This document shows, one piece after another, positions 6,431 through 39,293 of a stretch of 52,209 bases of DNA (positions within the stretch are counted from its first letter, which is position 1; every line of letters begins with the position of its first letter). A program made the position numbers and the translations under genes. The stretch covers positions 1 through 52,209 of IMG/VR virus record IMGVR_UViG_3300025674_000062; one strand, 5' to 3'. This stretch comes from a virus. The notes beneath the pieces were generated by a model that had not been told where the DNA came from, did not search any database, and worked only from the letters and a program-made list of their open reading frames with translations.

Positions 6431-6607
6431 ATGGAAGAAAAAAGAAAGATGTTGACCGACATCCTCGGTTCGTATTATCAAAAAGGTAATGAGCACTTGT
6501 ATCATTGTCCTTATTGTAAGCACCACAAGAAGAAAATGTCTGTAAACTTTGTAAAAAGGCTACTATTTACTTTTAGACATTTCATTTATCAGGAGACACA
6601 AAAATGA
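6431..6607 (+). pseudogene. Truncated second copy of the primase N-terminal zinc-finger region
   Basis: With its own promoter and a GGAGG RBS (6421-6425), this frame encodes 58 residues. The first 40 match the start of the primase at 7705: MLTDILGS against ILNDVLGS, YHCPYCKHHKKKMSVNF against YHCPFCNHHKKKLAINF. Similarity stops after VNF, before the second Cys pair of the zinc finger, and the remaining 18 residues are unrelated. The break falls just upstream of the ACTATTTA motif and RBS of the next gene, so a late-gene cassette appears to have replaced the rest of a primase copy. The stop overlaps the next ATG (ATGA). A 58-residue half-finger is unlikely to work as a primase. Confidence 0.75.
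6562..6571 (+). promoter_or_regulatory. ACTATTTACT motif at the primase-fragment junction
   Basis: The motif lies right after the point where primase similarity ends, 32 bases before ATG 6604. An AGGAG RBS at 6591-6595 follows it. Confidence 0.45.
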
Positions 6608-6879
6608 AAATTACAAACCAACAATTAAGAAGAATTATCAAAGAAGAACTTCAAGCAACTCTACGAGAGAGCAAGGATGAAGCACTTAAAATGATTATGG
6701 ATTTAGAAAAAGGCGACGACTTGGGTATGATCCTCGATTTCAGCGATCTCAAAGAGTTGGTTTCAAATGGAGATAAAGAAGGGGCTCTTAAAGAAATCGG
6801 CTATATGTATGAAGGCACAGAAACAGCAGGCCACGATAAACTCTTGAGACGATTAGAAAGATTAATTAAAAAAATGTAA
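6604..6879 (+). CDS. Small tagged protein (putative capsid cargo)
   Basis: A 91-residue protein whose first 22 residues are the recurring tag: MKITNQQLRRIIKEEL, then residues 17-22 ending L20-R-E22, followed by Ser23. L-R-E before Ser is an exact T4 prohead-protease-type site. The mature part (about 69 residues) is acidic and helical, with segments LKMIMDLEKGDD and LLRRLERLIKKM. I see no known domain. The ATG overlaps the TGA of the primase fragment, and its RBS AGGAG lies inside that fragment. The function after release is unknown; packaging in the head is inferred from the tag. Confidence 0.7.
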   Translation: MKITNQQLRRIIKEELQATLRESKDEALKMIMDLEKGDDLGMILDFSDLKELVSNGDKEGALKEIGYMYEGTETAGHDKLLRRLERLIKKM

Positions 6880-6947: not shown

Positions 6948-7121
6948 ATGTCTAATTTAAAAAATCTCAAAATCAACGAAGAGACCCACGAGAAGTTAAA
7001 GAACTATTGTAAAGAAAAGGGTTTGAAAGTTGGAAAGTTTGTTGAGAACTTGATTAACTCCAAGTTAGCGGAGGATAGTCAAAATGAACTCGGGAATTTA
7101 CAAAATAACAAACAAGATTAA
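6948..7121 (+). CDS. Small ribbon-helix-helix-like protein
   Basis: A 57-residue protein, MSNLKNLKINEETHEKLKNY followed by CKEKGLKVGKFVENLINSKL and a short polar tail. The pattern of a short strand (LKIN), a helix beginning EETHEKLKNYC, a turn with Gly, and a second helix (VGKFVENLINSKL) is that of ribbon-helix-helix DNA-binding proteins. It has a good RBS (AAGGAG) and overlaps the downstream homing endonuclease by 38 bases in another frame, so the two probably move or are regulated together. It may be a repressor or a nucleoid-type factor; that is inference. Confidence 0.6.
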   Translation: MSNLKNLKINEETHEKLKNYCKEKGLKVGKFVENLINSKLAEDSQNELGNLQNNKQD

Positions 7122-7647
7122 TGGAAAGTTTTATATTGGATCTTCAAATAATATTGAGAGAAGGTGGCGACACCACAAGTCAAACTTGAGAAGCGGAACT
7201 CATACCAATGTTCATCTTCAAAATTCTTACGACAAGCACGGCGAAGATCAATTTGAGTTTGTATTGATTGAGGAAGTAAGAAGAGCTAACTTACTTGTGA
7301 AAGAGCAAGAGTATCTTGACGAAGCCTTTGGTGGAGATCAAGAAATCTACAACATCAGTAGAGTAGCCGGCTCTCCTATGGCTGGATTAAATCATACAGA
7401 GGAAGTCAAGCAACTTCTATCTGAAAAACTGTCTGGTGAAAACCACCCACATTACGGAAAGCCCGTGAGTGAAGAGTGGCGAAGAAAGATAAGCAAATCA
7501 AATAAAAGATTTACGGACGAAGAAGAAGCGACATTTAGAAAAAGATGGTTAGCTGGAGAAACCAAAGGATCAATTGCAAAAGAAATTGGAGTCCATACAA
7601 CAACGATAACAAGGGCAATTGAAAGGGCGGAAAGATTTAATTACTAA
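7084..7647 (+). CDS. Free-standing GIY-YIG homing endonuclease (Seg-like)
   Basis: A 187-residue protein. The nuclease domain is N-terminal: GIY at residues 4-6, YIG at 17-19, the Arg cluster IERRWRHH at 24-31 with the likely catalytic Arg, and Glu in KEQEYLDEAFG for metal binding. A NUMOD3-like DNA-binding stretch follows (GENHPHYGKPVSEEWRRKIS), then a C-terminal helix-turn-helix (GSIAKEIGVHTTTITRAIE). Proteins of this type cut intergenic or coding targets in related phages lacking them and spread by repair. It sits between a broken and an intact primase start, as expected if its cut-and-repair activity rearranged this locus. RBS AGCGGAGG. Confidence 0.9.
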   Translation: MNSGIYKITNKINGKFYIGSSNNIERRWRHHKSNLRSGTHTNVHLQNSYDKHGEDQFEFVLIEEVRRANLLVKEQEYLDEAFGGDQEIYNISRVAGSPMAGLNHTEEVKQLLSEKLSGENHPHYGKPVSEEWRRKISKSNKRFTDEEEATFRKRWLAGETKGSIAKEIGVHTTTITRAIERAERFNY

Positions 7648-8677: not shown

Positions 8678-8971
8678 ATGAAATTAACAAACGCACAACT
8701 AAAACAAATCATCAAAGAAGAACTAAGCAAAGTTCTTAATGAACAAGATGGTGATTTGGAACAACTAGAAACAAGTCTTAAAGGCATGGGCTTTAATGTT
8801 GTAAATAACAGAACATCTCTAATGACTGATAATATTGAGATTGAATCAACTCCAGAGGGATTCAATATAATAGACCTTGATTATCCTGATCAGTCTAGAG
8901 AAATCAGCAAGTCTGTCGAAAAAGCTATAGAAGACATAAAAGACATAGTTAGACACAGAGGTGCTAACTAA
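8678..8971 (+). CDS. Small tagged protein (putative capsid cargo)
   Basis: A 97-residue protein with the tag MKLTNAQLKQIIKEEL, ending L20-N-E22 before Gln23. The remainder (LEQLETSLKGMGFNVVNNRT, then alternating polar and hydrophobic segments including NIEIESTPEGFNIIDLDYPD) looks like a small alpha/beta fold with no known family. It stands alone between the primase and the recombination gene and has its own ACTATTTATT motif and RBS, while its neighbours use sigma70-type promoters. This suggests late expression of an inserted cargo gene within an early or middle region. Confidence 0.7.
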   Translation: MKLTNAQLKQIIKEELSKVLNEQDGDLEQLETSLKGMGFNVVNNRTSLMTDNIEIESTPEGFNIIDLDYPDQSREISKSVEKAIEDIKDIVRHRGAN

Positions 8972-9043: not shown

Positions 9044-12000
9044 ATGATTAAGAAACCATTACGCATCTGTCACTTCGCTGACACCCACATCCGGAACCTA
9101 AAATTCCACGACGAATACAGATTTGTATTTAATCAAATTTATAAAAAACTATTATCACAAAAACCAGATTATATAATTCATTGTGGGGATCTGGCTCACA
9201 CCAAAACTCAATTGTCGCCAGAGTACTTTGCTCTGGCTTCTGAGTTCTTAAAGAACTTAGCTGACATTGCACCAACTTACATTATTCTTGGAAACCATGA
9301 CGGTAATCTAAAGAATTCTGATAGGGAAGATGCTGTGTCTCCCATAGTAAATGCCCTAAACCATCCACAATTGCATTTGCTAAAGAACTCTGGGCGTGTA
9401 TCACCACAACCTGGCTTGTCCCTAAATGTCCTGTCAATCTTTGACAGAGACGGTTGGATGCGTCCAAAGACCGGAGACATTAACATTGCTCTTTATCATG
9501 GTGCTGTTATGGGATCAAGAACAGGCTCAGGCTGGGCTATGGAACACGGAGACGATGACATAAGCATTTTCAAAGATCATGACTTTGTTATGCTTGGAGA
9601 TATTCACAAGCCACAAATCTTAGACACAGAAGGTCGTGTCCAATATGCTGGTTCCACAATTCAGCAAAACTTCTCAGAAGATGGACGCAAAGGCTACAAA
9701 CTATGGAACATAAGATCCAAAGATGATTTTGATTGTCAGCATGTAATCTTCACAAATCCTCGACCATTTGTCACAGTAGACCTAGACCAAAAGGGTGGCA
9801 TACCTCAACACATTCATGTGCCTCACGGTTGTCGTCTAAGATTAATCTCAACAACAAATTTAGATAGTGCTACAATCCGCAAGGTTACCGATTTAGCGCG
9901 TTCTAAATACAATCCGGTGTCTTTGACCTTTCTAAACAAAGGAACATCTCAATTCACAACCTCGGGCGGAGAAGAGCATAAGATGGAGAACATGCGTGAT
10001 GCTTCCATCCAAGAACAATACATTAGAGATTATTTAAAGGATTATGACTTAGAAGAAGACTTGATGTGTCAAGTGTTGGATCTCAATACTAAATACAATA
10101 TAGAGGTTGAGAAAAGTGAAGAAGTCAGAAGAAATGTCAAATGGAATATTAAAGAGATGGAGTTCTCGAATCTATTTAATTATGGACAAGACAATAGGTT
10201 GGATTTTGATAGCCTTTCTGGAACTGTTGGCATTTTTGGGAAGAACTACAGTGGGAAGTCTTCTGTTATTGATTCTGCTCTTTATGGCATTTTTGGCAGA
10301 ACCAGCAAGGCCGAAAAGAAAAACGTTCACCTCGTCAATCAAAACAAAGACAAAGCCTCTATCAGAATGGTTGTGGAAGCAGATGGTCAAGAGTATCAAA
10401 TTACTCGCAATCTTAATAAATCTAGCAAGACCGTCAAAGGAAAGTCCGTCGCTACTGCCTCTGGTGATCTTGATTTCCATAATCTCACTACCAATTCTTC
10501 TTGCAACGGGGATTCTGTAAAAGATACCGAAGCTAACATAAGAAAGATCTTTGGCGACATTGAAGACTTTATGATAACTTCTATGGCTTCTCAAATGGAT
10601 TCTCTTTCTTTTATTAACGAAGGTTCAACCAAGCGTAAGAATACACTTGCGAAGTTTCTTGATTTGGACATTTTTGAACAAAAACTTAACTTTGCCAAGA
10701 AAGATTCCTCTGAGATTTCAGCGCTGATAAAACGTCTCAAGAATAAAAAGCTTGGAGAATTGTTGGTTGCAAAGCAAGAAGAAGTCGAGGAGATCAATGA
10801 TGATATTGATCAACAAACAGATCTTTGTAAAAAGCATACCAATCGTTATGAAGAATTGCTAAAAGAATTAGCAGACATAGAGCAAGAAATCAACTCTATT
10901 CCTCAACAAATTATTGACATTGATGAGTTAGAAGATGAGATCGATAGACTTGATGTCGAGATACATAAGGCTGGTGTTAAGGTTTCCGGAAATAAAACCA
11001 CTATAAAAGAAAACATTTTAGCAATTGAACAAGCAGAAGCTATTGTAAGCTCCATAAATGAACATAGGCTTGCGCAAATAATAGAGCAGTGTAATGACTT
11101 CGAGAAGTCTCTAAAAGCTTCTGAAAAGGAACTACAGGCTCTCAAAACAAAAGAAAAGCAGTCTATCAAAAAGATCAACATGCTTCATGACCATGAGTAT
11201 GATCCTAACTGTGAATACTGTTCTAATAACAAGTTTGTAAAAGATGCTACCAAAGCCAAAGATTATCTTCCAACTCTTGAGGAAGAAATTGAGGAGGTTG
11301 AAAAGATTATTGATGGTTGGAAGCTAAAGATCTTTGGGTTGGACAAAGAATCAGCTGAAAAAGATCTTCGAATTCTTGATGAGAATATAAGCAAAAGGGA
11401 CAAGTTTGTACAAATAAACAAAAACTTAGAGATTACAAATGAGTCTATTGTTTCAAAAATTTCTTTGATGGGTAACCAGAAAGCTTCTCTCGAACAACAA
11501 CGAGACGAGTATAATGCCAATAGGCAAGCAATTGAGAACCTATCTTCTCTTGTTAAAACCAAGAATGCTGTGAAGACTAAAATGAATGAAGCAAAAGGTC
11601 GCAAAGAAAGATGCGATAAAAAGATTCAGGATTTGTTAGTTGAGCTTGGAGCTGTTAAAAGTACCATCAAGCGTCTTAATGTTGAAAAACGAGAGCAGGA
11701 TGAATTGGAAGAATCTTTCATAGCTTATGAATTGTTTATGCGTTGCATGCATCCAAATGGAATTGCTTATGAGATTATCAAACAAAAACTATCTCTTATT
11801 AACGAGGAAATACAAAAGTGTCTTGCAAACATTGTTGACTTCCAAGTTATGTTCGAGGAAGATGGTCGCAATCTAGATATCAATATAAAGCATCCAAAGT
11901 ATGACTCTCGACCTATCTCAATGGGATCAGGCGCAGAGAAGACCATAGCAGCTATGGCCATTCGTCTTGCTCTTATCGAGATAACCAATTTGCCTAAATC

Positions 12001-12196
12001 TACGCTGTTTATCATGGATGAACCGGCAACGGCATTAGACCAAGAGCATATGGAGGGCTTTGTAAGACTAATTGATATGATAAAAGACAAGTTCAAAACA
12101 GTGCTATTGATCTCTCACCTTGATGTTCTAAAAGACTGTGTTGATAAAACGATAGACATACAGAAAGTTGGCGGTTATGCAAAAGTAAACTGCTAA
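9044..12196 (+). CDS. Fused Mre11-Rad50-type (gp47-gp46/SbcD-SbcC) recombination nuclease
   Basis: One 1050-residue chain carrying both halves of the end-processing complex. Residues ~1-350 are an Mre11/SbcD/gp47 metallophosphatase: D13-x-H15, GD at 48-49, GNHD at 83-86, H152 and GDIH at 185-188. Residues ~365-1050 are a Rad50/SbcC/gp46 ATPase: Walker A (GKNYSGKS, 399-406), long coiled coils, a zinc-hook CEYC at 723-726, signature MGSGAEKT near 960 and Walker B FIMDEPATALD near 987. It would resect DNA ends for recombination-dependent replication. In T4 these are two genes. The frame is uninterrupted, the start has ACGGAGG, and a terminator follows the stop. Confidence 0.92.
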   Translation: MIKKPLRICHFADTHIRNLKFHDEYRFVFNQIYKKLLSQKPDYIIHCGDLAHTKTQLSPEYFALASEFLKNLADIAPTYIILGNHDGNLKNSDREDAVSPIVNALNHPQLHLLKNSGRVSPQPGLSLNVLSIFDRDGWMRPKTGDINIALYHGAVMGSRTGSGWAMEHGDDDISIFKDHDFVMLGDIHKPQILDTEGRVQYAGSTIQQNFSEDGRKGYKLWNIRSKDDFDCQHVIFTNPRPFVTVDLDQKGGIPQHIHVPHGCRLRLISTTNLDSATIRKVTDLARSKYNPVSLTFLNKGTSQFTTSGGEEHKMENMRDASIQEQYIRDYLKDYDLEEDLMCQVLDLNTKYNIEVEKSEEVRRNVKWNIKEMEFSNLFNYGQDNRLDFDSLSGTVGIFGKNYSGKSSVIDSALYGIFGRTSKAEKKNVHLVNQNKDKASIRMVVEADGQEYQITRNLNKSSKTVKGKSVATASGDLDFHNLTTNSSCNGDSVKDTEANIRKIFGDIEDFMITSMASQMDSLSFINEGSTKRKNTLAKFLDLDIFEQKLNFAKKDSSEISALIKRLKNKKLGELLVAKQEEVEEINDDIDQQTDLCKKHTNRYEELLKELADIEQEINSIPQQIIDIDELEDEIDRLDVEIHKAGVKVSGNKTTIKENILAIEQAEAIVSSINEHRLAQIIEQCNDFEKSLKASEKELQALKTKEKQSIKKINMLHDHEYDPNCEYCSNNKFVKDATKAKDYLPTLEEEIEEVEKIIDGWKLKIFGLDKESAEKDLRILDENISKRDKFVQINKNLEITNESIVSKISLMGNQKASLEQQRDEYNANRQAIENLSSLVKTKNAVKTKMNEAKGRKERCDKKIQDLLVELGAVKSTIKRLNVEKREQDELEESFIAYELFMRCMHPNGIAYEIIKQKLSLINEEIQKCLANIVDFQVMFEEDGRNLDINIKHPKYDSRPISMGSGAEKTIAAMAIRLALIEITNLPKSTLFIMDEPATALDQEHMEGFVRLIDMIKDKFKTVLLISHLDVLKDCVDKTIDIQKVGGYAKVNC

Positions 12197-12539: not shown

Positions 12540-12875
12540 ATGTTCTGGGTGAATAAAGCAAGAAGATGGATAATAGCTCATAAGAACTGGTTGGTTCTTA
12601 TGGGTCTGTTTGTTTTATCTTATGTTCTCGGAAAGAAAGCTAATAAGAACTATCTTGAAATGGCCAAGCTTGCCAAAGATCAATACAAAAAAGAAAACGA
12701 AGAAATTCAACGCCTACAAAAAGAAAAGCAAGTCAGAGATAAAAAAGCAGATGAAAAATCCAAAGCAGTTAAAGCTGCCCTTGAAGCTGAAAAACAAAGA
12801 AAGTTAGATGAATTACAAAATAAAAACGCTAATATCGACGATGTTTTTCAAGACATTGGAATAAAGAAAAAATGA
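12540..12875 (+). CDS. Spanin-like protein: membrane anchor plus coiled coil
   Basis: A 111-residue protein starting MFWVNKARRWIIAHKNW. One membrane segment (about residues 19-36, LVLMGLFVLSYVLGKK) is followed by a long Lys/Glu coiled coil to about residue 95. This is the shape of an inner-membrane spanin (Rz type) or of other phage membrane coiled-coil proteins. An ATG at 12519 is in frame, but it lies inside the upstream gene and lacks a good RBS. ATG 12540 has GGAG eight bases upstream and follows the previous stop by two bases. The stop overlaps the next gene (ATGA). Confidence 0.55.
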   Translation: MFWVNKARRWIIAHKNWLVLMGLFVLSYVLGKKANKNYLEMAKLAKDQYKKENEEIQRLQKEKQVRDKKADEKSKAVKAALEAEKQRKLDELQNKNANIDDVFQDIGIKKK

Positions 12876-13312
12876 AAATAACCAACAAACAATTGAAACA
12901 AATTATTAAAGAAGAATTATCTTACATTCTTAATGAACAAGAAGATAGAATTCAAAAACTTGCTCGTTATATACGAAATGGAGATACAGAAGATTTAATT
13001 CACGGTTTGGAATTAATTGAGGCTGCTGGGTTGGAACCATGGCACAGAGCTGATCTTTATCAGGCAATAAAGCAACATGTAGACCCGATAAAAGAAGAGA
13101 TGAAATCACTAAGTATGAAAATTTATGAGTTACGAGAACAGCTTTGGGGCCGGATACAGACACAACGACCACCTAATCATCTTGAACAGAAATTAAATGA
13201 AGCAGAACAAAAATATGAAGAATTAAAATTTGAACTGAGACAAATTGAACCAGTTCTTTCTAAATTTAAAACTAATTCTATGGTTTATGTTGATGATCCT
13301 ACAATGGAGTAA
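12872..13312 (+). CDS. Tagged helical protein (putative capsid cargo)
   Basis: A 146-residue protein with the tag MKITNKQLKQIIKEEL, ending L20-N-E22 before Gln23. A second possible cleavage site is L48-I-E50 before Ala51. The body is largely helical with a coiled-coil-like middle (residues ~75-135, PIKEEMKSLSMKIYELREQL and EQKYEELKFELRQ). No known domain was recognised. Its ATG overlaps the TGA of the spanin-like gene and it is followed after 3 bases by another envelope-type gene, so a head-cargo gene sits within a lysis-type cluster. Confidence 0.65.
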   Translation: MKITNKQLKQIIKEELSYILNEQEDRIQKLARYIRNGDTEDLIHGLELIEAAGLEPWHRADLYQAIKQHVDPIKEEMKSLSMKIYELREQLWGRIQTQRPPNHLEQKLNEAEQKYEELKFELRQIEPVLSKFKTNSMVYVDDPTME

Positions 13313-13315
13313 CAA

Positions 13316-13711
13316 ATGATTTTACTATTACTTTCAACACTTGCTTGGGGACAAGTTCCCGAGTACACACAAATAGAGCAAGGTGAGCCTGCTCCATTCT
13401 CCGGTCGCCTCTTCAATGAGGAGGCATCGCAACTTATTGCTGATCAATTAGCAAATTGTGTTGAGAAGTGTCAAATTGAAATGGACTATCAGCTTGGCTT
13501 AGCTCTCGCAAGGAAAGAAGAAGAATTAACACAAATAAAATCTCAACACAAGTATGATAAAGAAATTCTTCAACTTAAAGTAGAAGCACAGCAAGAAAGA
13601 ATTCAAGAACTTGAAAAGCTAAAAACACCACCAAAAAGACAACTTTGGTTCACGTTAGGACTAATTAGTGGAGTAGGAATTACAATTTCAATAGCAAAGG
13701 CGGTAAAATAA
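13316..13711 (+). CDS. Exported coiled-coil protein with C-terminal membrane anchor (spanin-like)
   Basis: A 131-residue protein. The N-terminus MILLLLSTLAWG is a short signal-peptide-like segment, with likely cleavage before QVPEYTQ. The middle (residues ~60-110) is a charged coiled coil and the C-terminus has a hydrophobic segment, LWFTLGLISGVGITISIA, ending in Lys. I recall similar proteins in marine T4-like phages without an assigned role. The signal peptide, periplasmic coiled coil and membrane anchor near a second coiled-coil membrane protein fit a spanin-type disruptor of the outer membrane. No lipobox Cys is seen. It ends TAATG with the next gene. Confidence 0.55.
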   Translation: MILLLLSTLAWGQVPEYTQIEQGEPAPFSGRLFNEEASQLIADQLANCVEKCQIEMDYQLGLALARKEEELTQIKSQHKYDKEILQLKVEAQQERIQELEKLKTPPKRQLWFTLGLISGVGITISIAKAVK

Positions 13712-14847
13712 TGAAAATAACAAAACAAGATATCAAAAGAATGATCAAGGAAGAACTAAAAAAAGTTCTCTTAGAAGATATAAGTCCAGTACCAAATATG
13801 AATCCAAGAGACGCTCTTCAGTTTATGAGAGAAGAACTAGAAGGCAAAACGCTTATCTTTTGGGATTTAGAAACAATCTCGGGAATGACAAAAGAAAAGT
13901 ACTTACCACCAGAGTTACAAGAAAGAACTTACTCTGGACAAATAACACAAATTGGTGCGACAGCATATGAAATCGAATCTTTAGATGATGACCCAGCACA
14001 AGCTTTAGTTGGAGAACCATTTGAAAGAAAAGTGATCCTCACCCCTGATACTTTAATGCAACAAGCTTTTGAGAGAGAGCAATTGAAAGACCCTGAATCT
14101 TCTTTTAGCAGATTAGCAGCCCGTCAGCCAGATGCTCCAATAACAGTTGATAAAACACTTCAATTTACACACCATAGTGATCTAGATCTTGAAGACGTTG
14201 ATGAAGCAGATGCTTTGATTGAATATTTTAATTGGCTTGATTCTTTTGATAATAAGGTTTTGTTAGGTCACAACATAATCACATTTGATAATCAATTTCT
14301 TAAGAAAAGAGTTGAGTACTTAGCTGAGACTTTAGAAGACAAACAAAAAGTTGCTCAATTAGTCTCTGGTTACGATTCGTTTTATGATAATGACTTTTTC
14401 GACACTTTAAAGTTTACACGTTATTTGTTTAAGCAAGTTATCACTATGCTTAACTCATATGAAGACCCAATAGCAGCTCAATTCTTTGATCCTGAAACAA
14501 ATCAGAAAAAAATTCAACAAGGAATTACACAAAAATTTACAAGTAAATTATCAAGACTTATGCAAGTTTATGCAAAAGACGCAATTCAATTACATACTGC
14601 TGCTGATGATACGAGACAGTTGGTTAATGTTTTCTTTAAAATGTATCAAACAATAAAAACAGCACAACAAAATCCAGATTATGCTCGTCAGATGGCTTCA
14701 CCGCATCACACTAATCCTATTAAAGCTGCTAAGCAATTGTTCCCAGACGATTTAGAAAAACAAAAATCTGTAAGGGATTTGGCACCAGATGAGATTAGCA
14801 GAATGTTAAAAAGAAAAATTAAATTTCCAGAAGACTGGGAGGTTTAA
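13711..14847 (+). CDS. Tagged DnaQ-type 3'-5' exonuclease (DexA-like), putative capsid cargo
   Basis: A 378-residue protein. The tag is MKITKQDIKRMIKEEL, ending L20-L-E22 before Asp23. From about residue 47 comes an RNase T/DnaQ fold: Exo I IFWDLETISG (D52, E54), Exo II LLGHNIITFDNQFL near 183-197, FFDTLKFTRYLF, and Exo III HTAADDTRQL near 295 giving the HxxxxD motif. It resembles the T4 DexA exonuclease in type but has the extra N-terminal leader. If the leader directs packaging, the nuclease would enter the host with the DNA. Expression is coupled to the upstream gene by TAATG overlap. Confidence 0.85.
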   Translation: MKITKQDIKRMIKEELKKVLLEDISPVPNMNPRDALQFMREELEGKTLIFWDLETISGMTKEKYLPPELQERTYSGQITQIGATAYEIESLDDDPAQALVGEPFERKVILTPDTLMQQAFEREQLKDPESSFSRLAARQPDAPITVDKTLQFTHHSDLDLEDVDEADALIEYFNWLDSFDNKVLLGHNIITFDNQFLKKRVEYLAETLEDKQKVAQLVSGYDSFYDNDFFDTLKFTRYLFKQVITMLNSYEDPIAAQFFDPETNQKKIQQGITQKFTSKLSRLMQVYAKDAIQLHTAADDTRQLVNVFFKMYQTIKTAQQNPDYARQMASPHHTNPIKAAKQLFPDDLEKQKSVRDLAPDEISRMLKRKIKFPEDWEV

Positions 14848-15233
14848 TGAAAAATAAAGATCCAAATTATATTGTAAAAGTAGAAAAAGCTATTGCAGAA
14901 AAATACGGCCAAGAAGCCATCGACAATCCAAAGAGGCACTGGACCGACGAAAAAGAGAAGGAATATGTAAAACAACTAAAAGATCTTTACAAAGATTCAA
15001 AACAAAAAGATGACTTCCAAGTTGAAGTTGGTGGCGTTTTTATTGCAGAGAAACTAATTACCAAAGAATCTAAACGCTCTTGCCCTACTTGTAATACTTA
15101 TTCATTCAAATCAAACGATGACGTTTATATGGCAAAATTTGATTGTTGTGAAAAATGTTATATCCAATGGGTTGAGGGACGAGAAGAACGATGGCTAAAA
15201 GGATGGAGACCCCAAAATGAAAATAACAAATGA
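14847..15233 (+). CDS. Conserved phage zinc-ribbon protein
   Basis: A 128-residue protein. Residues ~1-60 are Lys/Glu-rich helices; the C-terminal part has a zinc-ribbon pattern CPTC (about 78-81) and CCEKC (about 99-103), followed by the distinctive YIQWVEGREERWLKGWRP. I recall this ending from other marine T4-like phages, where it lies among head genes without an assigned function. A nucleic-acid or protein-binding role is a guess from the ribbon. Its start overlaps the stop of the exonuclease gene by one base, and its end overlaps the next gene by 17 bases. Confidence 0.65.
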   Translation: MKNKDPNYIVKVEKAIAEKYGQEAIDNPKRHWTDEKEKEYVKQLKDLYKDSKQKDDFQVEVGGVFIAEKLITKESKRSCPTCNTYSFKSNDDVYMAKFDCCEKCYIQWVEGREERWLKGWRPQNENNK

Positions 15234-15846
15234 ACAATTAAGACAAATTATCAAAGAAGAGCTTGAAGCTGTATTAAATGAAGCTTATGCAGGACAGGGA
15301 GAAACCACAGGTTTATCTGGTCGAACAGGTTATGCAAAAAGCAAACAGCAAAAAGATCTAGAACGAGATGCTAAAGCTAGACAATCTCAACATTATGATA
15401 ACCAAGAAGCTGGTGAGAGAGCTTATAGACAACAACAAGCAGACAAAAAACAAGCAGCAAAAGACAGAGCTGCCCCTGGGAAAAGAAGTGCTAACATACG
15501 CGAAATGTCAAAGTTTGTTGTTAAAGATACCATAAGTGACTTGATAGGATTGATGGATAGTGATTTTGGACAACATAGAGGCGATAGAACCGGTTTTTTT
15601 AAAGCTTTAAAAAAGATTAGCGGAATGACAGAAAAAGATTTTATAAATAAAGTAGAAGAAACAACCGAGGCTTATATGACAAAAAAGAATATTACACAAT
15701 TACAAGACAGAGATATGAAAAAAATTGCAAACGATTCGGCATTTGAAATTAAACAATTAATTAAAGATGCTAAAAAGAAAGCAAGGAATAGAACATTTAT
15801 GCAAAAAGCTGGTAGTTTTTTAACAGGTAAAGGCTTCAAACAATAA
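15217..15846 (+). CDS. Tagged basic/polar protein (putative capsid cargo)
   Basis: A 209-residue protein. The tag MKITNEQLRQIIKEEL ends L20-N-E22 before Ala23, the strongest match to the prohead-protease consensus in the series. Residues 23-90 are low-complexity, rich in Gln, Lys, Ala, Arg and Gly, and probably disordered. Residues ~95-209 are helical (FVVKDTISDLIGLMDSDF, then a Lys-rich C-terminus FLTGKGFKQ). No enzymatic motif is visible. The gene starts 17 bases inside the preceding one, using a GGAG at 15205-15208 as RBS. Net positive charge would suit a DNA-associated internal protein; that is inference. Confidence 0.65.
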   Translation: MKITNEQLRQIIKEELEAVLNEAYAGQGETTGLSGRTGYAKSKQQKDLERDAKARQSQHYDNQEAGERAYRQQQADKKQAAKDRAAPGKRSANIREMSKFVVKDTISDLIGLMDSDFGQHRGDRTGFFKALKKISGMTEKDFINKVEETTEAYMTKKNITQLQDRDMKKIANDSAFEIKQLIKDAKKKARNRTFMQKAGSFLTGKGFKQ

Positions 15847-15858
15847 AAGGAGAATCTT

Positions 15859-16413
15859 ATGAGCAACACAACATTAGAAATTATACAAGGACTTTCACAA
15901 GCAGCAGCTAATGCTTACGATGGCGCACATGATGAAAAATATTCTTACGACGGTCAAGCTCGCACAATGGGTTTGAAAAGAGAAGAAGGTTGTCCAATTA
16001 TGGACAAAAGAGTTATGGACGGCTTCAAAGTTCGCTTCTATGGTGACTCAATGATTCTTTCTTACCAAGCCGAGGTTATGCTTAAAGAAGTTTATGGTGG
16101 GAGATTTGAACAAGATATTGAATCAATGATGAATGATATCAAGAAATTCTTGCAAAAAGAATACAGAGCAGTTACAGGAAAGTCAGTGACCCTTACAGCT
16201 AAAGGTGAGCCTAATATCCTTGTTCAATCAACATCAAGAATTCGTAATTGGGTTGAGGCACAACAACACTTCAAGATTGGCGGAATTGAATCCTTGCCTA
16301 TTCTTGAGCCTTCAATAGACCAAACAAGAGACGTAACAAGAAAGTTCTTAGAACAATTTTCGGACAAACGCCCACAAAACGATACACGCAAAAAAGGAGC
16401 AAATCAAAAATGA
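15859..16413 (+). CDS. Conserved phage protein upstream of terminase
   Basis: A 184-residue protein beginning MSNTTLEIIQGLSQAAANAY and containing REEGCPIMDKRVMDGFKVRF, an alternating strand pattern, and SRIRNWVEAQQHFKIGG. I recognise this as a conserved protein of marine T4-like phages near terminase and portal, but know no function. It has no tag, membrane segment or catalytic motif. The C-terminus is basic and polar. RBS AAGGAG is before ATG 15859, and its stop overlaps the next tagged gene (ATGA). Confidence 0.65.
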   Translation: MSNTTLEIIQGLSQAAANAYDGAHDEKYSYDGQARTMGLKREEGCPIMDKRVMDGFKVRFYGDSMILSYQAEVMLKEVYGGRFEQDIESMMNDIKKFLQKEYRAVTGKSVTLTAKGEPNILVQSTSRIRNWVEAQQHFKIGGIESLPILEPSIDQTRDVTRKFLEQFSDKRPQNDTRKKGANQK

Positions 16414-16730
16414 AAATCACAAATGAACAATTAAAGCAAATTATTAAAGAAGAATTAGAAACAGTCCTCAATGAAGAAAGACAAGCTTTTGTTTTTTTTG
16501 ATCCATCTGGAAACATAGAACTTCAAAATGTTAGCATTGACGATAGTCAAAATTGGAATATTCCTGTTCATTATTTTGATCAACAAAGCTACAGGACTCT
16601 ATTGTCATTGAAAGGGAAACCATTAGGCCAAGAAGGTGCTCAATATTTCTTCAACATGATAAAAAGACTTAATGCTAAACCTGATAAATTGAACGTTGAA
16701 AAATTAGCAAGAGCAAAGGTCACCAGCTAG
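16410..16730 (+). CDS. Small tagged protein (putative capsid cargo)
   Basis: A 106-residue protein with the tag MKITNEQLKQIIKEEL, ending L20-N-E22 before Glu23. The mature part begins near RQAFVFFDPSGNIELQNVSI and looks like a compact alpha/beta domain, with a helix around YRTLLSLKGKPLGQEGAQYF. No known family was recognised. It is inserted directly between the conserved 15859 gene (ATGA overlap) and the terminase, 12 bases downstream. Confidence 0.65.
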   Translation: MKITNEQLKQIIKEELETVLNEERQAFVFFDPSGNIELQNVSIDDSQNWNIPVHYFDQQSYRTLLSLKGKPLGQEGAQYFFNMIKRLNAKPDKLNVEKLARAKVTS

Positions 16731-18388: not shown

Positions 18389-20356
18389 ATGCCCAAATAT
18401 AAAAAGTCGCCTTATAATCCTCAGTCGGATCTATTTAAGGCTCTTACAAAATTGTTTTCTGGTCCGATTACCCAGAGAAGAACACAAACAGGTCGTCAAC
18501 TAAGAAGACGACAATTAGATAATTATGCAACAAAGTTTCAATCAGCTACTGGTGCTCAATTTAAGAAGTGGGAATACAATCCCATAAACTCTGTTACTCT
18601 TAACATGATCTCAAACAGAAACAGAGCAGAGCGCTATGTTGATTTTGATGAAATGGAATATATGCCAGAGATCGCATCTTCATTAGATATTTATGCAGAT
18701 GAGATGACAACTCACACAGCACTTCGTCCGATGCTTAACATTAAATGTGCGAACGAAGAAATAAAACACATCCTCCATAATTTATATCACAATGTTCTTA
18801 ACATTGAACACAACCTATTTGGATGGGCAAGAACAATGTGCAAGTACGGTGATTTCTTTCTTTATCTTGATATTGATGAAGATATGGGAATTCGATCTGC
18901 TATTGGTCTTCCAACCAGAGAGATCGAGCGTCTTGAGGGCGAGGACCAAAGTAATCCTAATTACGTTCAATACCAGTGGAACACAGCTGGACTAACTCTG
19001 GAGAATTGGCAAGTTGCTCACTTCAGAATCCTTGGTAATGATAAGCATGCTCCTTATGGAACGTCGGTCCTCGAACCTTGTAGACGCATTCACCGTCAAC
19101 TTATTCTTTTAGAAGATGCTATGATGGCTTATAGAATTGTACGTGCTCCTGAACGTCGGTTGTTCAAAATTGACGTTGGTGGTATTCCACCGCAAGAAGT
19201 TGAACAGTACATGCAAAAAGTTATGTCACAATTAAAAAGACACTCAGTTGTAGATCCAAATACAGGTCGTGTCGATCTACGTTATAACCCTTTATCAATT
19301 GAAGAAGATTATTATATTCCAATACGTGGAGGACAATCTTCAACAGATATCACAAGTCTTCCCGGTGCAGCTTATAATGGCGGTATTGATGATGTTAAGT
19401 ATCTCAGAGATAAATTGTTTGCTGCTTTGAAGATACCTCAGTCTTATTTGACCATGGGCGAAGGTGCTTCTGAAGACAAAACCACATTAGCTCAAAAAGA
19501 TATTAGATTTGCAAGAACAATACAAAGATTACAAAGAGTTGCAATTGCTGAATTAGAAAAGATTGGAATAATACATCTCTACACGATGGGATACAGAAAT
19601 GATGATCTATTAGCTTTCACACTTCAACTAAACAATCCGTCTAAGATTGCTGAGTTGCAAGAACTTGAACATTGGGACAAAAAGTTTTCTGTTGCTGGAA
19701 ATGCAACAGAAGGATACTTCTCAAAACGCTGGATTGCGGAACACCTTTTCGGAATGTCTGAGGATGAGTTTCTTCGTAACCAAAGAGAAATGTTCTTTGA
19801 TAAAAAATTCGCAGCAAAACTTGAAGCTGCTACTGCTGGTGGAGAAGCTAGTGAAGACGCCGGTGGTGGTGGCGGACTTTCTGGTGGACTTGGCGACCTC
19901 GGTGGTGGAGGTGACCTTGGTGGAGGTGAAGATTTAGGAGGTGACCTTGGCGGTGACCTTGGCGGTGGAGACACCGGTGGAGGAGATGTCGGCGGCGACG
20001 AAGGGGGTGATACCGATCTGCTCGCCGAACCCTCTGCGAAACGTGATGATTCACCTTCATATGTTGATATTCCAAGAAAGGTTGGATTTAACAATCCCGA
20101 CACAAGACGAGGTCCATACAAAAGGCACCAATCTTCTTATGATAAAGGCGGTATGAAAAAGTCTATGCTCGGCTCCACAGGAATTGAGGCAGCAAGATCT
20201 ACAGGTCGTAACATTTATAAAGGCTATGTTGGAAATGAATTTTCTGTTTCCCAAGCAGCTGGTGGCTATTTAGAAGAAGAACAAAAACTAGAAACAGTAT
20301 CTCGCGAAGTCGAGATGCTTATTGAATCATTAAACAAAAAGGAATCAATAGAATGA
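18389..20356 (+). CDS. Portal protein (gp20-like)
   Basis: A 655-residue dodecameric portal through which DNA is packaged. Typical gp20 features are AERYVDFDEMEYMPEIASSLDIYADE near residues 70-95, FKIDVGGIPPQEVEQYMQKVM, and LFAALKIPQSYLTMGEGASEDKTTLAQKDIRFARTI. The C-terminal part (about residues 490-550) is an unusual low-complexity stretch of Gly and Asp repeats (GGDLGGG units), followed by a normal polar tail with YVDIPRK and a helical end. This linker is absent in T4 as far as I know. The stop overlaps a tagged gene (ATGA). Confidence 0.92.
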   Translation: MPKYKKSPYNPQSDLFKALTKLFSGPITQRRTQTGRQLRRRQLDNYATKFQSATGAQFKKWEYNPINSVTLNMISNRNRAERYVDFDEMEYMPEIASSLDIYADEMTTHTALRPMLNIKCANEEIKHILHNLYHNVLNIEHNLFGWARTMCKYGDFFLYLDIDEDMGIRSAIGLPTREIERLEGEDQSNPNYVQYQWNTAGLTLENWQVAHFRILGNDKHAPYGTSVLEPCRRIHRQLILLEDAMMAYRIVRAPERRLFKIDVGGIPPQEVEQYMQKVMSQLKRHSVVDPNTGRVDLRYNPLSIEEDYYIPIRGGQSSTDITSLPGAAYNGGIDDVKYLRDKLFAALKIPQSYLTMGEGASEDKTTLAQKDIRFARTIQRLQRVAIAELEKIGIIHLYTMGYRNDDLLAFTLQLNNPSKIAELQELEHWDKKFSVAGNATEGYFSKRWIAEHLFGMSEDEFLRNQREMFFDKKFAAKLEAATAGGEASEDAGGGGGLSGGLGDLGGGGDLGGGEDLGGDLGGDLGGGDTGGGDVGGDEGGDTDLLAEPSAKRDDSPSYVDIPRKVGFNNPDTRRGPYKRHQSSYDKGGMKKSMLGSTGIEAARSTGRNIYKGYVGNEFSVSQAAGGYLEEEQKLETVSREVEMLIESLNKKESIE

Positions 20357-20718
20357 AAATAACAAACAAACAACTAAAACAAATAATAAAAGAAGAACTT
20401 GATAATACACTTCAAGAAATGCAAGTGGGCTTAGGGCTTCCTCATGAATTTACAGATGAGGAATTAATCCAACACGCATCTGAATTTCTGAATACAGTTT
20501 ATGTTCCAGAAAGAACCGGAAGGATTTGGAGCAACGAGGATAATATAAAAGCTTTAGGATTATATAAGATTTTAGGAAACAGGGTGAGAGAAGCAGGTGT
20601 TTTCAATAATGATCCGACTGATGCAGATAAAGATGCGGCAAAAAGAAAACAGTGGGAACTTAGACGGTTACGTAGCGAACTACAGAATATTATATCCCGA
20701 GAGTTTTTAGATATTTAA
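20353..20718 (+). CDS. Tagged protein (putative capsid cargo)
   Basis: A 121-residue protein with the tag MKITNKQLKQIIKEEL, ending L20-Q-E22 before Met23. The mature part is helical and charged (FTDEELIQHASEFLNTVYVP, then ALGLYKILGNRVREAGVFNN and a final WELRRLRSELQNIISREF). I do not recognise a family. It lies exactly between the portal gene and the conserved 20732 gene. In T4 the corresponding position holds the small prohead core genes 67 and 68, so a core or internal protein is a reasonable inference. Confidence 0.65.
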   Translation: MKITNKQLKQIIKEELDNTLQEMQVGLGLPHEFTDEELIQHASEFLNTVYVPERTGRIWSNEDNIKALGLYKILGNRVREAGVFNNDPTDADKDAAKRKQWELRRLRSELQNIISREFLDI

Positions 20719-22615: not shown

Positions 22616-23335
22616 ATGAAAATAACAAATAAACAATTAAGACAAATCATAAAGGAAGAGCTCAATCGTGTTTTAAGAGAAAACATGGGTTTAAAAATGT
22701 TTGTCCTCGTTGGTCCACCATCTGTTGGTAAATCAACTTGGATTAATAAAACTTTTGGACAAAATAGACCTTACGTCATCAATAGAGATGATATAGTTGA
22801 AGATGTTGCCTCAGAATATGGTTGGACATATGACGACATGTTTGCAACACCACCACAGGACGCAGAAATTGGCAGTGTTGACCAAAAATACGGTGAAGTA
22901 CAGAAACCACCAAGTTGGATGACTTGGGCAAAATCAGTGTTTTCAACTGTTATGGAAGCAAATGGGAAAGTTCATAACTTGTTTACACAGAGAGTAGCAG
23001 GTGCCGTAGATAGTGGTCAAGACATTGTAGTTGATATGACTAATATGAACAAGAGAGCCAGATCTGGTGCTTTAAAAGCAATTGAAGGTTCAGAAGATCA
23101 ATATGAAAAAATTGCTGTTGTTTTTGAATCTAAAGGAGCTGAAGAATTTATTAAAGCCGTTGCTCAAAAAAGAGCTGAGGCTGCTGCAAGAATGGGTAAA
23201 TCTAAAACAATCCCTCCTGCTGTTTTTGATAGAATGTTTGCATCATTTGAAGATGTAAGTATGGATGAAGGGTTTGATGAAATAGTGAGTGTGGATAATA
23301 GACAATTACTACAACAACTAGCTAGTGAGATGTAA
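22616..23335 (+). CDS. Tagged polynucleotide-kinase-like P-loop protein, putative capsid cargo
   Basis: A 239-residue protein. The tag MKITNKQLRQIIKEEL ends L20-R-E22 before Asn23. The body is a P-loop kinase: Walker A GPPSVGKS at 33-40, INRDD at 55-59 (the Asp position used as general base in T4 polynucleotide kinase), VVDMTNMNKRAR at 138-149 and IPPAVFDRMFASFE near 199-212, all in the order seen in the T4 PseT kinase domain. No C-terminal phosphatase domain is present. It might phosphorylate 5'-OH ends of RNA or DNA. ATG 22616 is chosen over the upstream ATG at 22589 because it begins the tag and has GGAG six bases before it. Confidence 0.8.
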   Translation: MKITNKQLRQIIKEELNRVLRENMGLKMFVLVGPPSVGKSTWINKTFGQNRPYVINRDDIVEDVASEYGWTYDDMFATPPQDAEIGSVDQKYGEVQKPPSWMTWAKSVFSTVMEANGKVHNLFTQRVAGAVDSGQDIVVDMTNMNKRARSGALKAIEGSEDQYEKIAVVFESKGAEEFIKAVAQKRAEAAARMGKSKTIPPAVFDRMFASFEDVSMDEGFDEIVSVDNRQLLQQLASEM

Positions 23336-23336
23336 A

Positions 23337-23966
23337 ATGAGTAAACAATTATTAACAGAATTTTTTGAACTATGTCCCGATGGACGTTGCCTTGATCGTC
23401 TGAGCGAATCTCAAAAACGTGAGGTAATCCAAGAGGGGGCTGTTTATCTTGTTGGTCGTATTCAAACTGCTGACAAAAAGAACGGAAACGGACGTGTTTA
23501 TCCCGAGAAAGTTCTAAAGAAAGAAATACAAAATTATCAAAAAATCATAAGAGATAACAGAGCCACAGGCGAACTAGATCATCCGGATGATTCTGTTATA
23601 AACTTAAAGAATGTTTCACACATGATTACCGAATGTTGGTGGGAAGGAAAAGATGTCATGGGCAAGATCAAAGTTCTTGACACACCATCTGGTCGTATTC
23701 TCAAAGATCTAATCAATGCTGGTGTAAAACTTGGTATTTCTTCTCGAGGACTTGGTTCTGTTAAAGAATCAATGGGTAACACAGTAGTTGAAGAAGACTT
23801 CCAATTAATTTGTTTTGACATTGTAGCAGAACCTTCAACACCAGAAGCTTATGTTGCTCCTCGTGGATCTACATCTGGAATAAACAGAGGCGCAGTTAAA
23901 TTTAAAATAGCTGAGGGTAAAGAAAACAATATTGACCAACTATTTAATAAGATCTTGAGGGACTAA
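23337..23966 (+). CDS. Prohead core protease (gp21-like)
   Basis: A 209-residue serine protease that matures the prohead by cutting scaffold, capsid and internal proteins after (L/I)-x-E. Candidate catalytic residues are His82 (GELDHPDD) and Ser135/Ser136 (LGISSRGLGS), in the order of the T4 gp21/herpesvirus assemblin fold. FDIVAEPSTPEAYV is the usual conserved C-terminal block. The protein itself contains L22-S-E24 before Ser, I31-Q-E33 before Gly and I191-A-E193 before Gly, consistent with self-cleavage. ATG 23337 follows the previous stop by one base. The end overlaps the next start (TAATG). Confidence 0.92.
   Translation: MSKQLLTEFFELCPDGRCLDRLSESQKREVIQEGAVYLVGRIQTADKKNGNGRVYPEKVLKKEIQNYQKIIRDNRATGELDHPDDSVINLKNVSHMITECWWEGKDVMGKIKVLDTPSGRILKDLINAGVKLGISSRGLGSVKESMGNTVVEEDFQLICFDIVAEPSTPEAYVAPRGSTSGINRGAVKFKIAEGKENNIDQLFNKILRD
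23939..23948 (+). promoter_or_regulatory. ACTATTTAAT motif inside the end of the protease gene
   Basis: It ends 17 bases before ATG 23966, the same spacing as several intergenic copies. It is coding here, so chance is possible. Confidence 0.25.
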
Positions 23967-36479: not shown

Positions 36480-37523
36480 ATGTCATCTATGTTAGAACAA
36501 GCTATTGTTGATGCTAAGGCTTTAAAAGAAGCAGCTCTCAAGAATGCAGAGCAGGCGGTAATCGACAAATATTCCTCTGAAATTAAAGCTGCTGTTGAGG
36601 AGCTATTAGAAGGAAATGATAACTCACAAAAAGAAGTGATTCAAGAAGAAATGGATATTCCATTTGCCTCCGATCCTTCTCTTGCTGATGATGAGCCAGT
36701 TGAAATGGAAATGGAATTTGAATTTAATCCAGAAGATTTTCGTCTTGATTTGGAATCAATCAAACAACAAGCAGAAGAAGATCCAACAAGCGGCGGAGAA
36801 CAGCCACAGGACACCGAATCTCTTGCGGCAGACATTGGTGCCTCCGAAGCTCCCGAAGAGCCTCCAGCGGAAGATATGGGCGATTTAGGCGGTCTTTTGC
36901 AAGAAGGTGAAGAGGAAGAAGATGATTTGTTAAATGAATTGATTTCTATGCTTGAAGATGATGAAGAATTATTGGATGAAGCTCTTGTTGTTGATATGGA
37001 AGAAGTTAAACATGGTCATGTTGTAACAGATAACTCAGCAAGAAAATATGATGCTGAAATGGAGTTGGCAAAACAACAATCAACAAAGTATCAAGAAAAA
37101 GCTAAAGAATTAGAAAAACAAGTCGGAGAATTACAAAACTCTGTTCTTATGTATCAAGACAAACAGGATCAATTAAGAACTGTTCTTGATGACATGAAAG
37201 GTAAGTTAGAAGAAATGGTTTTACAAAATGCTAGACTTTTGTATAGCAATAAAGTTTTACGCGATGCCTCCTTGAATGAGCGACAAAAAGATAAAATTGT
37301 CGAAGCAATCGCTAAGGCGGAGACTTTGAAAGAAGCAAAGACTCTTTACACAACTCTTAAAGAAACTACAGTGGGTACCAAACAAAATGGTCCAAAATCA
37401 CTAAGTGAGTCAGTACAGAGAAAGCAGGTTCTTTCTGCACATCTGCCAAGACGCAAGCAAGAAAACATAACAGAGTCGCATGATTTTGCTTCTCGTATGA
37501 AAAAACTTGCTGGCATAGACTAA
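36480..37523 (+). CDS. Prohead scaffolding core protein (gp22-like)
   Basis: A 347-residue, very acidic helical protein directly upstream of the capsid gene, as gene 22 is in T4. It builds the internal core and is destroyed by the prohead protease. Sites matching (L/I)-x-E before A/G/S are numerous: after E17, E44, E142, E167, E275, E285, E310 and E332. Residues ~60-170 are extremely acidic and probably disordered. Residues ~185-300 form a coiled coil (YQEKAKELEKQVGELQNSVL). The C-terminus (ITESHDFASRMKKLAGID) is typical of the family. RBS AGGAGA. Confidence 0.88.
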   Translation: MSSMLEQAIVDAKALKEAALKNAEQAVIDKYSSEIKAAVEELLEGNDNSQKEVIQEEMDIPFASDPSLADDEPVEMEMEFEFNPEDFRLDLESIKQQAEEDPTSGGEQPQDTESLAADIGASEAPEEPPAEDMGDLGGLLQEGEEEEDDLLNELISMLEDDEELLDEALVVDMEEVKHGHVVTDNSARKYDAEMELAKQQSTKYQEKAKELEKQVGELQNSVLMYQDKQDQLRTVLDDMKGKLEEMVLQNARLLYSNKVLRDASLNERQKDKIVEAIAKAETLKEAKTLYTTLKETTVGTKQNGPKSLSESVQRKQVLSAHLPRRKQENITESHDFASRMKKLAGID

Positions 37524-37541: not shown

Positions 37542-39293
37542 ATGTCTATTATTCAAACACTAAGTGAAGGCATTGTCAATCGTGATCTTAAAAAAGAAGG
37601 TGCTGCACTTTTAACTAAGTGGGAAGCTACCGGACTTCTTGAGGGTATTGATACCCAACAAGGTAAGCACAATATGGCTCGTCTTCTCGAAAATCAAGCG
37701 AAGGAACTTCTTCGCGAATCTAACGCAATGTCAAATGGTCAAGTTGAAGGTTTTGCTTCAGTTGCTTTCCCAATTGTACGTCGTGTTTTTGCTGGATTGA
37801 TCGCAAACGATCTCGTTTCTGTTCAACCAATGTCTCTTCCAAGTGGATTGATCTTCTTCTTGGATTTTGTTTATTCACCAAGAATTAACGATGATTCTGT
37901 TACCGCTAGTGGTACAGCTGATCCTCGTTTTGGTAATGCAGTATCTAAATCGATTTATGGTACAGATCAAGTTGGTTCTCAAATTACCGGTGGTGTTGAT
38001 CTCGTAGGAAGTCTTGGAGAAAACCTTTCTGGTCCTAGACAAATGGTAGGTTATTCTTATGCTTCTCCTCTTAAAAAAGCTGATATTGCTGGTACTGGTC
38101 ATGAAACTAGTTTTGGAATTATTTCTGCTTTGACAGAAGCTCAAAAGAAAGAAATTAAGTATGATCCAGATGTTCTAGCTGAAACTTCTTCCTATATTTT
38201 AAAATTAGCTATTCCTAAAACTGATTTTAGTAATGCAGACTTCAAAAATCTTGCAGCATTTAATATCTCAGGTTCTTCTTTGGCTTATTCTGATGGCGGT
38301 GGTTCAGATGTTAATGATGATGATACTAAATTAATTCGTCGATTGACTTCTGATGATGGAACTAACATCAACTTTTTCTTTGTTGGTCCTGCTGCTTTGG
38401 CTAACATCGATCCAGATGGCAATGTTAGAATCGACCACCCGGAAAAAGATGAACTTACTTCAACTGCCGATAAGCTTGGTGCTATTGATGGATTCAACTT
38501 CCCGTTTGAAGGAAGCGGCGAATTGCCAGAAATCGACATCAAAGTTGACTCAATCGCGATTACAGCTCAAACCAAAAAGCTTAAAGCAAAATGGACACCT
38601 GAGTTGGGTCAAGATTTGAATGCTTATCACAACCTTGATGCTGAAGTAGAACTTACATCGATTCTTTCTGAGCAAATCGCTCTTGAAATCGACCGTGAAC
38701 TTCTTGCTGATCTTGTAAATGGCGCAACTGCTGCAACATACTACTGGTCTCGTTCACCTGGTCTTTTCGTTAATCGTACAACCGGTGCTGAGCTTGGTGC
38801 TACATCTGCTGCTCCTGACTTCACAGGAACTGTTTCAGAATGGTACGAAACTCTTATCGAAACCATTAACGACGTTTCTGCACAAATCCACTTGAAAACA
38901 CTTCGTGGTGGAGCTAACTACATTGTTTGTTCTCCTGAAGTTGCTAACATTCTTGAGTTTACCTCTGGATATCGTGCAAACGTTACAGCTGATGCTGACA
39001 AAGGAACCATCGGTGCCGTTAAGGTTGGTTCTCTTTCTCGTAAGTTTGACATCATCGTTGATCCTTACTTCCCAAGAAATGCTATTCTTGTTGGACGTAA
39101 AGGCGGCTCATTCCTTGAGTCTGGATACGTTTATGCTCCTTACGTTCCACTTCAAACAACACCTACAATCTTCGGTGTCGAAGACTTTGTGCCACGTAAA
39201 GGCGTAATGACTCGATACGGTAAGAAGATGGTTCGTCCTGATATGTACGGTCTTGTAATCGTTCGTGGTCTCCTTGGAGAGGAAGGTTCTTAA
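37542..39293 (+). CDS. Major capsid protein (gp23-like, HK97 fold)
   Basis: A 583-residue shell protein, somewhat longer than T4 gp23 (521). The N-terminal region is a removable propeptide with three candidate protease sites: L7-S-E9 before Gly, L32-L-E34 before Gly and L57-R-E59 before Ser60; the last lies near the T4 maturation point. The family signature FPIVRRVFAGLIANDLVSVQPM follows. The C-terminal part contains LKTLRGGANYIVCSPEVANI, VDPYFPRNAILVGRKGGSFL and YGLVIVRGLLG, all typical of gp23. It lies 18 bases after the scaffold gene and is followed by a strong terminator. Confidence 0.95.
   Translation: MSIIQTLSEGIVNRDLKKEGAALLTKWEATGLLEGIDTQQGKHNMARLLENQAKELLRESNAMSNGQVEGFASVAFPIVRRVFAGLIANDLVSVQPMSLPSGLIFFLDFVYSPRINDDSVTASGTADPRFGNAVSKSIYGTDQVGSQITGGVDLVGSLGENLSGPRQMVGYSYASPLKKADIAGTGHETSFGIISALTEAQKKEIKYDPDVLAETSSYILKLAIPKTDFSNADFKNLAAFNISGSSLAYSDGGGSDVNDDDTKLIRRLTSDDGTNINFFFVGPAALANIDPDGNVRIDHPEKDELTSTADKLGAIDGFNFPFEGSGELPEIDIKVDSIAITAQTKKLKAKWTPELGQDLNAYHNLDAEVELTSILSEQIALEIDRELLADLVNGATAATYYWSRSPGLFVNRTTGAELGATSAAPDFTGTVSEWYETLIETINDVSAQIHLKTLRGGANYIVCSPEVANILEFTSGYRANVTADADKGTIGAVKVGSLSRKFDIIVDPYFPRNAILVGRKGGSFLESGYVYAPYVPLQTTPTIFGVEDFVPRKGVMTRYGKKMVRPDMYGLVIVRGLLGEEGS

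What the first reader, a model, noticed from the sequence alone, without database searches (positions are those of the whole stretch)
13711..14847. A DnaQ/DexA-type exonuclease carrying the capsid-targeting tag
The protein has complete Exo I (WDLE), Exo II (HNxxxFDNQF) and Exo III (HxxxxD) motifs behind the 22-residue leader. A nuclease placed inside the head would enter the host at once and might degrade host DNA or defence-generated ends, or trim phage DNA. Having an active nuclease packed next to the phage genome also raises the question of how it is kept inactive; the uncleaved tag or the packed state could do this.
Basis: partly seen in the sequence, partly recalled or inferred. Interest (0 to 1): 0.78.

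Follow-up and report, generated by a model that had tools for sequence, protein, structure and literature searches.

The report
Phage exonuclease with head-import tag
An uncultured T4-like phage and its relatives make a DNA-end-chewing enzyme that carries a removable address label for the virus head, so it is probably packed into the particle and delivered into the next bacterium with the genome; this has not been shown by experiment.

Summary
ORF 13711-14847 (378 aa) has complete DEDDh exonuclease motifs behind a 22-residue leader shared with seven other proteins in the window. Across 89 leader-bearing proteins from related viral contigs (45-46 unrelated bodies), conservation stops sharply at residue 22. 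[LIM]-x-E ends exactly there in 75 of 89, against about 1% at other positions. That is the T4 gp21 cleavage rule (L/I-x-E|). The window encodes the matching S77 prohead protease, and its gp23 has the motif near the place where T4 gp23 is cut.
The exonuclease is a core gene of a clade of uncultured T4-like phages, next to a fused Mre11-Rad50. All five catalytic residues are invariant across 21 homologues (down to ~21% identity), and dN/dS is 0.06-0.14. Every complete homologue keeps an N-terminal [LI]-x-E site, even long forms with a different leader. The predicted fold matches Exo I, Pol III epsilon and TREX (Z ~14).
Most likely it is packed by a T4-type capsid-targeting propeptide, freed by the protease before DNA enters, and injected to act on DNA 3' ends. 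Corrections: it is not DexA-type, and the tag is probably cut off, so it is a poor candidate for the inhibitor. Packaging, activity and substrate are unproven.

The parts
13711..14847 (+). DEDDh 3'-5' exonuclease precursor, 378 aa
   Evidence: ORF; PF00929 above cut-off; fold matches Exo I/epsilon/TREX Z 13.6-14.9
13711..13776 (+). 22-residue leader MKITKQDIKRMIKEELKKVLLE, proposed capsid-targeting propeptide
   Evidence: shared with 45-46 unrelated protein bodies; near-invariant in the exonuclease family at 37-40% overall identity
13768..13779 (+). predicted prohead-protease site LLE|D (residues 20-23)
   Evidence: L20-x-E22 invariant in all 21 homologues; matches T4 gp21 L/I-x-E rule (PMC9026906)
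13864..13872 (+). Exo I motif D52-L53-E54
   Evidence: invariant in 21 homologues
14269..14289 (+). Exo II motif H187-N188-xxx-F192-D193
   Evidence: invariant positions in 21 homologues
14401..14403 (+). D231, invariant acidic residue after a beta strand, role unknown
14593..14610 (+). Exo III motif H295-TAAD-D300 (DEDDh type)
   Evidence: H295 and D300 invariant in 21 homologues
6604..6669 (+). same leader on a 91-aa protein
8678..8743 (+). same leader on a 97-aa protein
12872..12937 (+). same leader on a 146-aa protein
15217..15282 (+). same leader on a 209-aa basic protein
16410..16475 (+). same leader on a 106-aa protein
20353..20418 (+). same leader on a 121-aa protein
22616..22681 (+). 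same leader on a 239-aa AAA_33 / polynucleotide-kinase-like protein
23325..23966 (+). prohead protease, Peptidase_S77 (T4 gp21 type), the presumed leader-cutting enzyme
   Evidence: PF03420 E 2e-33, phrog_207 E 1e-59
36480..37523 (+). putative scaffold (gp22-like by position only; 13 L/I-x-E sites, 7.6 expected)
   Evidence: position before gp23; no family hit
37542..39293 (+). major capsid protein gp23 with conserved LRE|S site at residues 57-60
   Evidence: PF07068 E 5e-71; site conserved in relatives

Best explanation
The protein is a precursor of a DEDDh 3'-5' exonuclease that is a natural internal head protein. The 22-residue amphipathic leader binds the prohead core (inferred from T4 CTS). 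The S77 prohead protease cuts after L20-L21-E22 before DNA packaging (site shown, cutting inferred), leaving a 356-residue enzyme beside the genome. In the particle it is idle because it acts from 3' ends and needs divalent metal, while packaged linear DNA offers only two ends (inferred). On infection it enters with the DNA (inferred from T4 internal proteins) and acts in the first minutes on 3' ends in the host: host or defence-generated DNA ends, or ends of the incoming genome (substrate inferred, least certain). Shown by computation: intact conserved active site, fold, strong selection, leader modularity, fixed cleavage motif, matching protease and gp23 site.
For: Leader on 89 proteins, 45-46 unrelated bodies. 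Conservation ends at E22 and [LIM]xE ends there in 75/89. Synonymous codons vary, so selection is on protein. S77 protease in the window and in 18/24, 3/8 and 4/6 fragmentary contigs. gp23 carries LRE|S/A in all relatives read. L20 and E22 are invariant in all 21 exonuclease homologues, including four at 21-23% identity with a different leader; further complete long forms also have [LI]xE|R. Catalytic D52, E54, D193, H295, D300 invariant. dN/dS 0.06-0.14. AlphaFold2 model pLDDT 80.7, pTM 0.80; best PDB matches E. coli Exo I Z 14.9, Pol III epsilon 14.1, TREX1/2 14.1. T4 precedent: CTS-fused nucleases packaged, processed and delivered (PMC9026906).
Against: No virion proteomics is known to me for this clade. 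The exonuclease has no homologue in 50,697 phage records by single-sequence search. The leader differs in sequence from the T4 CTS (MKTYQEFIAE, from memory). The gene sits beside a fused Mre11-Rad50 in every branch where that flank is held, which also fits an intracellular recombination role. The mature exonuclease is acidic (net -18), unlike basic T4 IPs. P1' is D, which is not typical of the T4 sites known to me.
Confidence: 0.62

Rival explanations
1. Intracellular DNA-metabolism exonuclease: it works with the fused Mre11-Rad50 in replication, recombination or host-DNA breakdown during infection. The leader only parks surplus enzyme in, or near, the prohead.
For: Conserved synteny downstream of the Mre11-Rad50 fusion across branches; DEDDh fold of replication/repair enzymes.
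Against: Mre11-Rad50, primase, terminase and other DNA enzymes in the same genomes lack the leader, so the leader is selective. L-x-E is kept even where the leader changes.
Confidence: 0.17
2. The leader is not a head-targeting signal but a docking peptide for another partner (host chaperone, replisome, membrane).
For: Leader is a predicted helix and binding partners are unknown; sequence differs from T4 CTS.
Against: Fixed L/I/M-x-E end at residue 22, co-occurrence with S77 protease on most contigs, and absence from conserved non-head proteins.
Confidence: 0.13
3. The enzyme acts inside the head or prohead, trimming 3' overhangs or frayed ends left by terminase, rather than in the next host.
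For: Would need exactly such an end-specific enzyme in the head; nucleases can be active in T4 heads (PMC9026906).
Against: T4-like headful packaging is not known to need it; no direct evidence.
Confidence: 0.08

Closest known systems
T4 internal head proteins (IPI, IPII, IPIII, Alt) with capsid-targeting sequence
   Same: Short N-terminal leader shared by unrelated proteins, ending in an L/I-x-E site for an S77 (gp21) protease
   Different: Leader is 22 rather than 10 residues and different in sequence; cargo is a nucleic-acid enzyme; far more cargo types across the clade
Engineered CTS-nuclease fusions in T4 (IPIII-SN, EcoRI; PMC9026906)
   Same: A nuclease carried into the head by a cleavable leader
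   Different: Those were man-made endonucleases; this is natural and an end-dependent exonuclease
E. coli exonuclease I (SbcB), Pol III epsilon, TREX1/2
   Same: DEDDh fold and motifs, Z about 14 over 165-196 residues
   Different: 15-24% identity; large insertion between Exo I and Exo II; helical C-terminal extension; no such leader known in those
T4 DexA
   Same: A DEDD-type 3'-5' exonuclease in a T4-like phage
   Different: No family or profile match; annotated for T4 replication and host DNA degradation

Membership tests
T4-type capsid-targeted internal head protein | N-terminal leader shared by several otherwise unrelated proteins | tested here: met
   8 in window, 89 in total, 45-46 body families
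T4-type capsid-targeted internal head protein | Leader ends in L/I-x-E site | tested here: met
   LLE|D in the window; invariant L20/E22 in 21 homologues
T4-type capsid-targeted internal head protein | Genome encodes an S77 prohead protease and gp23-type capsid with the same site | tested here: met
T4-type capsid-targeted internal head protein | Protein is inside the particle and processed there | not testable with these tools
   needs virion proteomics
DEDDh exonuclease (DnaQ superfamily) | Exo I D-x-E, Exo II D, Exo III H-x4-D | tested here: met
   all invariant in 21 homologues
DEDDh exonuclease (DnaQ superfamily) | RNase H-like exonuclease fold | tested here: met
   model pLDDT 80.7; Z 14.9 to Exo I
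DEDDh exonuclease (DnaQ superfamily) | 3'-5' exonuclease activity | not testable with these tools
   needs assay
T4 DexA | Match to the DexA family profile (phrog_255) | tested here: not met
   DexA hits phrog_255 at 4e-91; none of 12 family members does at E 0.01; hhalign probability 0.4% against the single DexA sequence
Exonuclease I / TREX subfamilies | Subfamily-specific sequence features beyond the shared fold | tested here: inconclusive
   several DEDDh subfamilies tie at Z about 14; best PDB sequence hit only E 2e-4

The most novel reading that the evidence does not exclude
A whole clade of uncultured T4-like phages loads its heads with a nucleic-acid end-processing kit, all addressed by one cleavable 22-residue leader: the DEDDh exonuclease, a polynucleotide-kinase-like enzyme and, in relatives, a 2H phosphoesterase. 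These enzymes would act before any phage gene is expressed, probably against host defence. In the long-form branch both ends of the exonuclease would be trimmed, as in T4 Alt.
Probability: 0.38. Interest if true: 0.8.

Novelty: new variant of a known kind. Interest (0 to 1): 0.64.

Why it matters
If true, it is a natural case of a nuclease carried in a phage head next to the genome by a cleavable address tag, known in the papers read here only from engineered T4 fusions. The tag lets head cargo be read from sequence in uncultured phages, and it gives a direct test of how a virus ships an active nuclease with its own DNA.

Tried and rejected
DexA membership: rejected. Cultured relatives (Flavobacterium immuto, Microcystis Mel-JY01, Rhodothermus RM378, T4): no exonuclease match with the family profile. 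Cellular genomes: none found at this sensitivity. T4-type late promoters TATAAATA: not enriched (4 vs 3.5 expected), so timing is untested. First structure model too weak (pLDDT 54.8) and not used. Literature: no phage paper in the held library prints the leader core IIKEEL (only an immunopeptidome paper matched), and no paper on this leader or on a natural CTS-borne exonuclease was found. L015 is a DNA polymerase match, not a family member. Terminase N-termini (MKLTKNEIVKELVRCGKDP) resemble the leader's first residues but lack the EE core and E22; judged coincidence. No base rate of the S77 protease among random viral contigs was measured.

Full report
Observation. The gene at 13711-14847 (+) encodes 378 residues and looks translationally coupled to its neighbours: its ATG overlaps the upstream stop, and the next ATG overlaps its own stop. 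Pfam gives RNase_T above the gathering score. The leader MKITKQDIKRMIKEELKKVLLE is shared with seven other window proteins.

The leader. I collected 89 distinct proteins with this leader from the window and related IMG/VR contigs. Without the leader they fall into 45-46 unrelated body families, so the leader is a module. Conservation is high through residue 16, lower at 17-18, and ends abruptly after E22 (3.55 bits at 22, 1.0 at 23, below 0.9 after). [LIM]-x-E ends exactly at 22 in 75 of 89, and in 38 of 45 families counted once; 29 of 45 have strict [LI]xE. The background is 1% per position. Codons vary synonymously, so selection is on protein. T4 gp21 cuts after L/I-x-E, and T4 internal proteins use 10-19-residue N-terminal propeptides both as address and as cleavage site (PMC9026906). 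The window encodes a S77 protease (E 2e-33) and gp23 (E 5e-71). Its gp23 and all relatives read keep LRE|S/A some 60 residues from the start, near T4's cleavage point (65-residue propeptide). S77 was found on 18 of 24 leader-bearing or related contigs and on 3/8 and 4/6 of those holding further homologues, all of them fragments. Conserved non-head enzymes in the same genomes (Mre11-Rad50, primase, terminase) do not carry the leader.

The exonuclease family. Close homologues (36-40% identity) all carry a version of the leader, including variants my strict pattern missed (MAITKQDIMKMIKEEL..., MRIDQQTIRRIIKEEL...). A distant branch (640-755 aa, 21-23% identity where measured) occupies the same syntenic place after the fused Mre11-Rad50. 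It has a different basic leader (MRIKIKKxxxxLNE|R). Even so, L20 and E22 are invariant over all 21 aligned proteins, together with D52, E54, H187, N188, D193, D231, H295 and D300. All eight long forms with a complete N-terminus have [LI]xE|R within about 15 residues. Their C-termini also hold a hydrophobic-x-E|[SNGD] followed by a conserved basic tail, reminiscent of T4 Alt, which is cut at both ends (PMC9026906); this is suggestive only. dN/dS in the body is 0.06-0.14 for close pairs. No homologue was found in the phage record collection, in the nearest cultured relatives or T4, or in GTDB genomes at this sensitivity.

Structure. With 21 homologues AlphaFold2 gave pLDDT 80.7 and pTM 0.80. The leader is a low-confidence helix (residues 5-19, pLDDT about 50-64). 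PDB matches are E. coli exonuclease I (Z 14.9), Pol III epsilon (14.1) and TREX1/2 (14.1) over 165-196 residues. Several subfamilies tie, so no subfamily is assigned. T4 DexA belongs to phrog_255, which this family does not hit.

Mechanism. Best explanation: targeting to the prohead core, cleavage by the S77 protease, retention beside the DNA, ejection with the genome, and early action on 3' ends. Shown here: active-site integrity, fold, selection, modular leader, fixed cleavage motif, matching protease. Inferred: targeting, cleavage, ejection, substrate. On the question of how it is kept inactive, the uncleaved tag is an unlikely brake, since the site is conserved and T4 propeptides are removed before packaging. 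Packing alone is also not a brake, since staphylococcal nuclease in T4 heads digests the genome once Ca2+ is supplied (PMC9026906). End-dependence plus metal need is the simplest account.

Related cargo. The window also has a leader-bearing polynucleotide-kinase-like AAA_33 protein (22616-23332). In a relative it directly follows a leader-bearing 2H phosphoesterase-like protein with two HxT motifs. This suggests a nucleic-acid end-processing set, but function is untested. A 484-kb uncultured phage record (LR756508) has at least five ORFs with a related leader, four ending in L-x-E and one in V-x-E at residue 22, so the device is wider than this clade.

Novelty. Capsid-targeted internal proteins are known from T4; nuclease delivery by such a tag is known only from engineered fusions in the papers read. 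A natural exonuclease with such a tag and this 22-residue tag family were not found in the held literature. I therefore call it a new variant of a known kind.

Noticed in passing
window 9044-12196: Mre11-type phosphoesterase and Rad50-type ATPase fused in one 1050-aa ORF (T4 gp47-gp46 as one chain), conserved near the exonuclease across the clade.
   Followed up: partly
window 22616-23332; L022:794-1510: Leader-bearing AAA_33 / polynucleotide-kinase-like protein, probably another head cargo.
   Followed up: partly
L003:20250-20747, L036:7813-8307, L020:2115-2609, L056:106-603: Leader-bearing 2H phosphoesterase-like proteins (two HxT motifs read in L003 and L036); could be RNA repair or cyclic-nucleotide cleavage.
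   Followed up: partly
window 5675-6376; L003, L028, L037: A second N-terminal leader type, M(K/Q)LIMENWK(R/Q)(F/Y)(L/I)xE, also ending in L/I-x-E; the window copy is MKVIMENWRKNLVLNE.
   Followed up: partly
LR756508.1 at 155070, 194332, 219570, 219852 (L126-L129): A 484-kb uncultured phage has at least five ORFs with a related leader such as MRLSERKLRRIVKEEISRVLRE|D.
   Followed up: partly
L049, minus strand, 693-2024: 444-aa protein of unknown family with a leader MRVKIKRLLKE|N and C-terminal VIKVRIL like the long-form exonucleases.
   Followed up: no
window 7084-7647: GIY-YIG homing-endonuclease-like gene with NUMOD3 motif inside the cluster.
   Followed up: no
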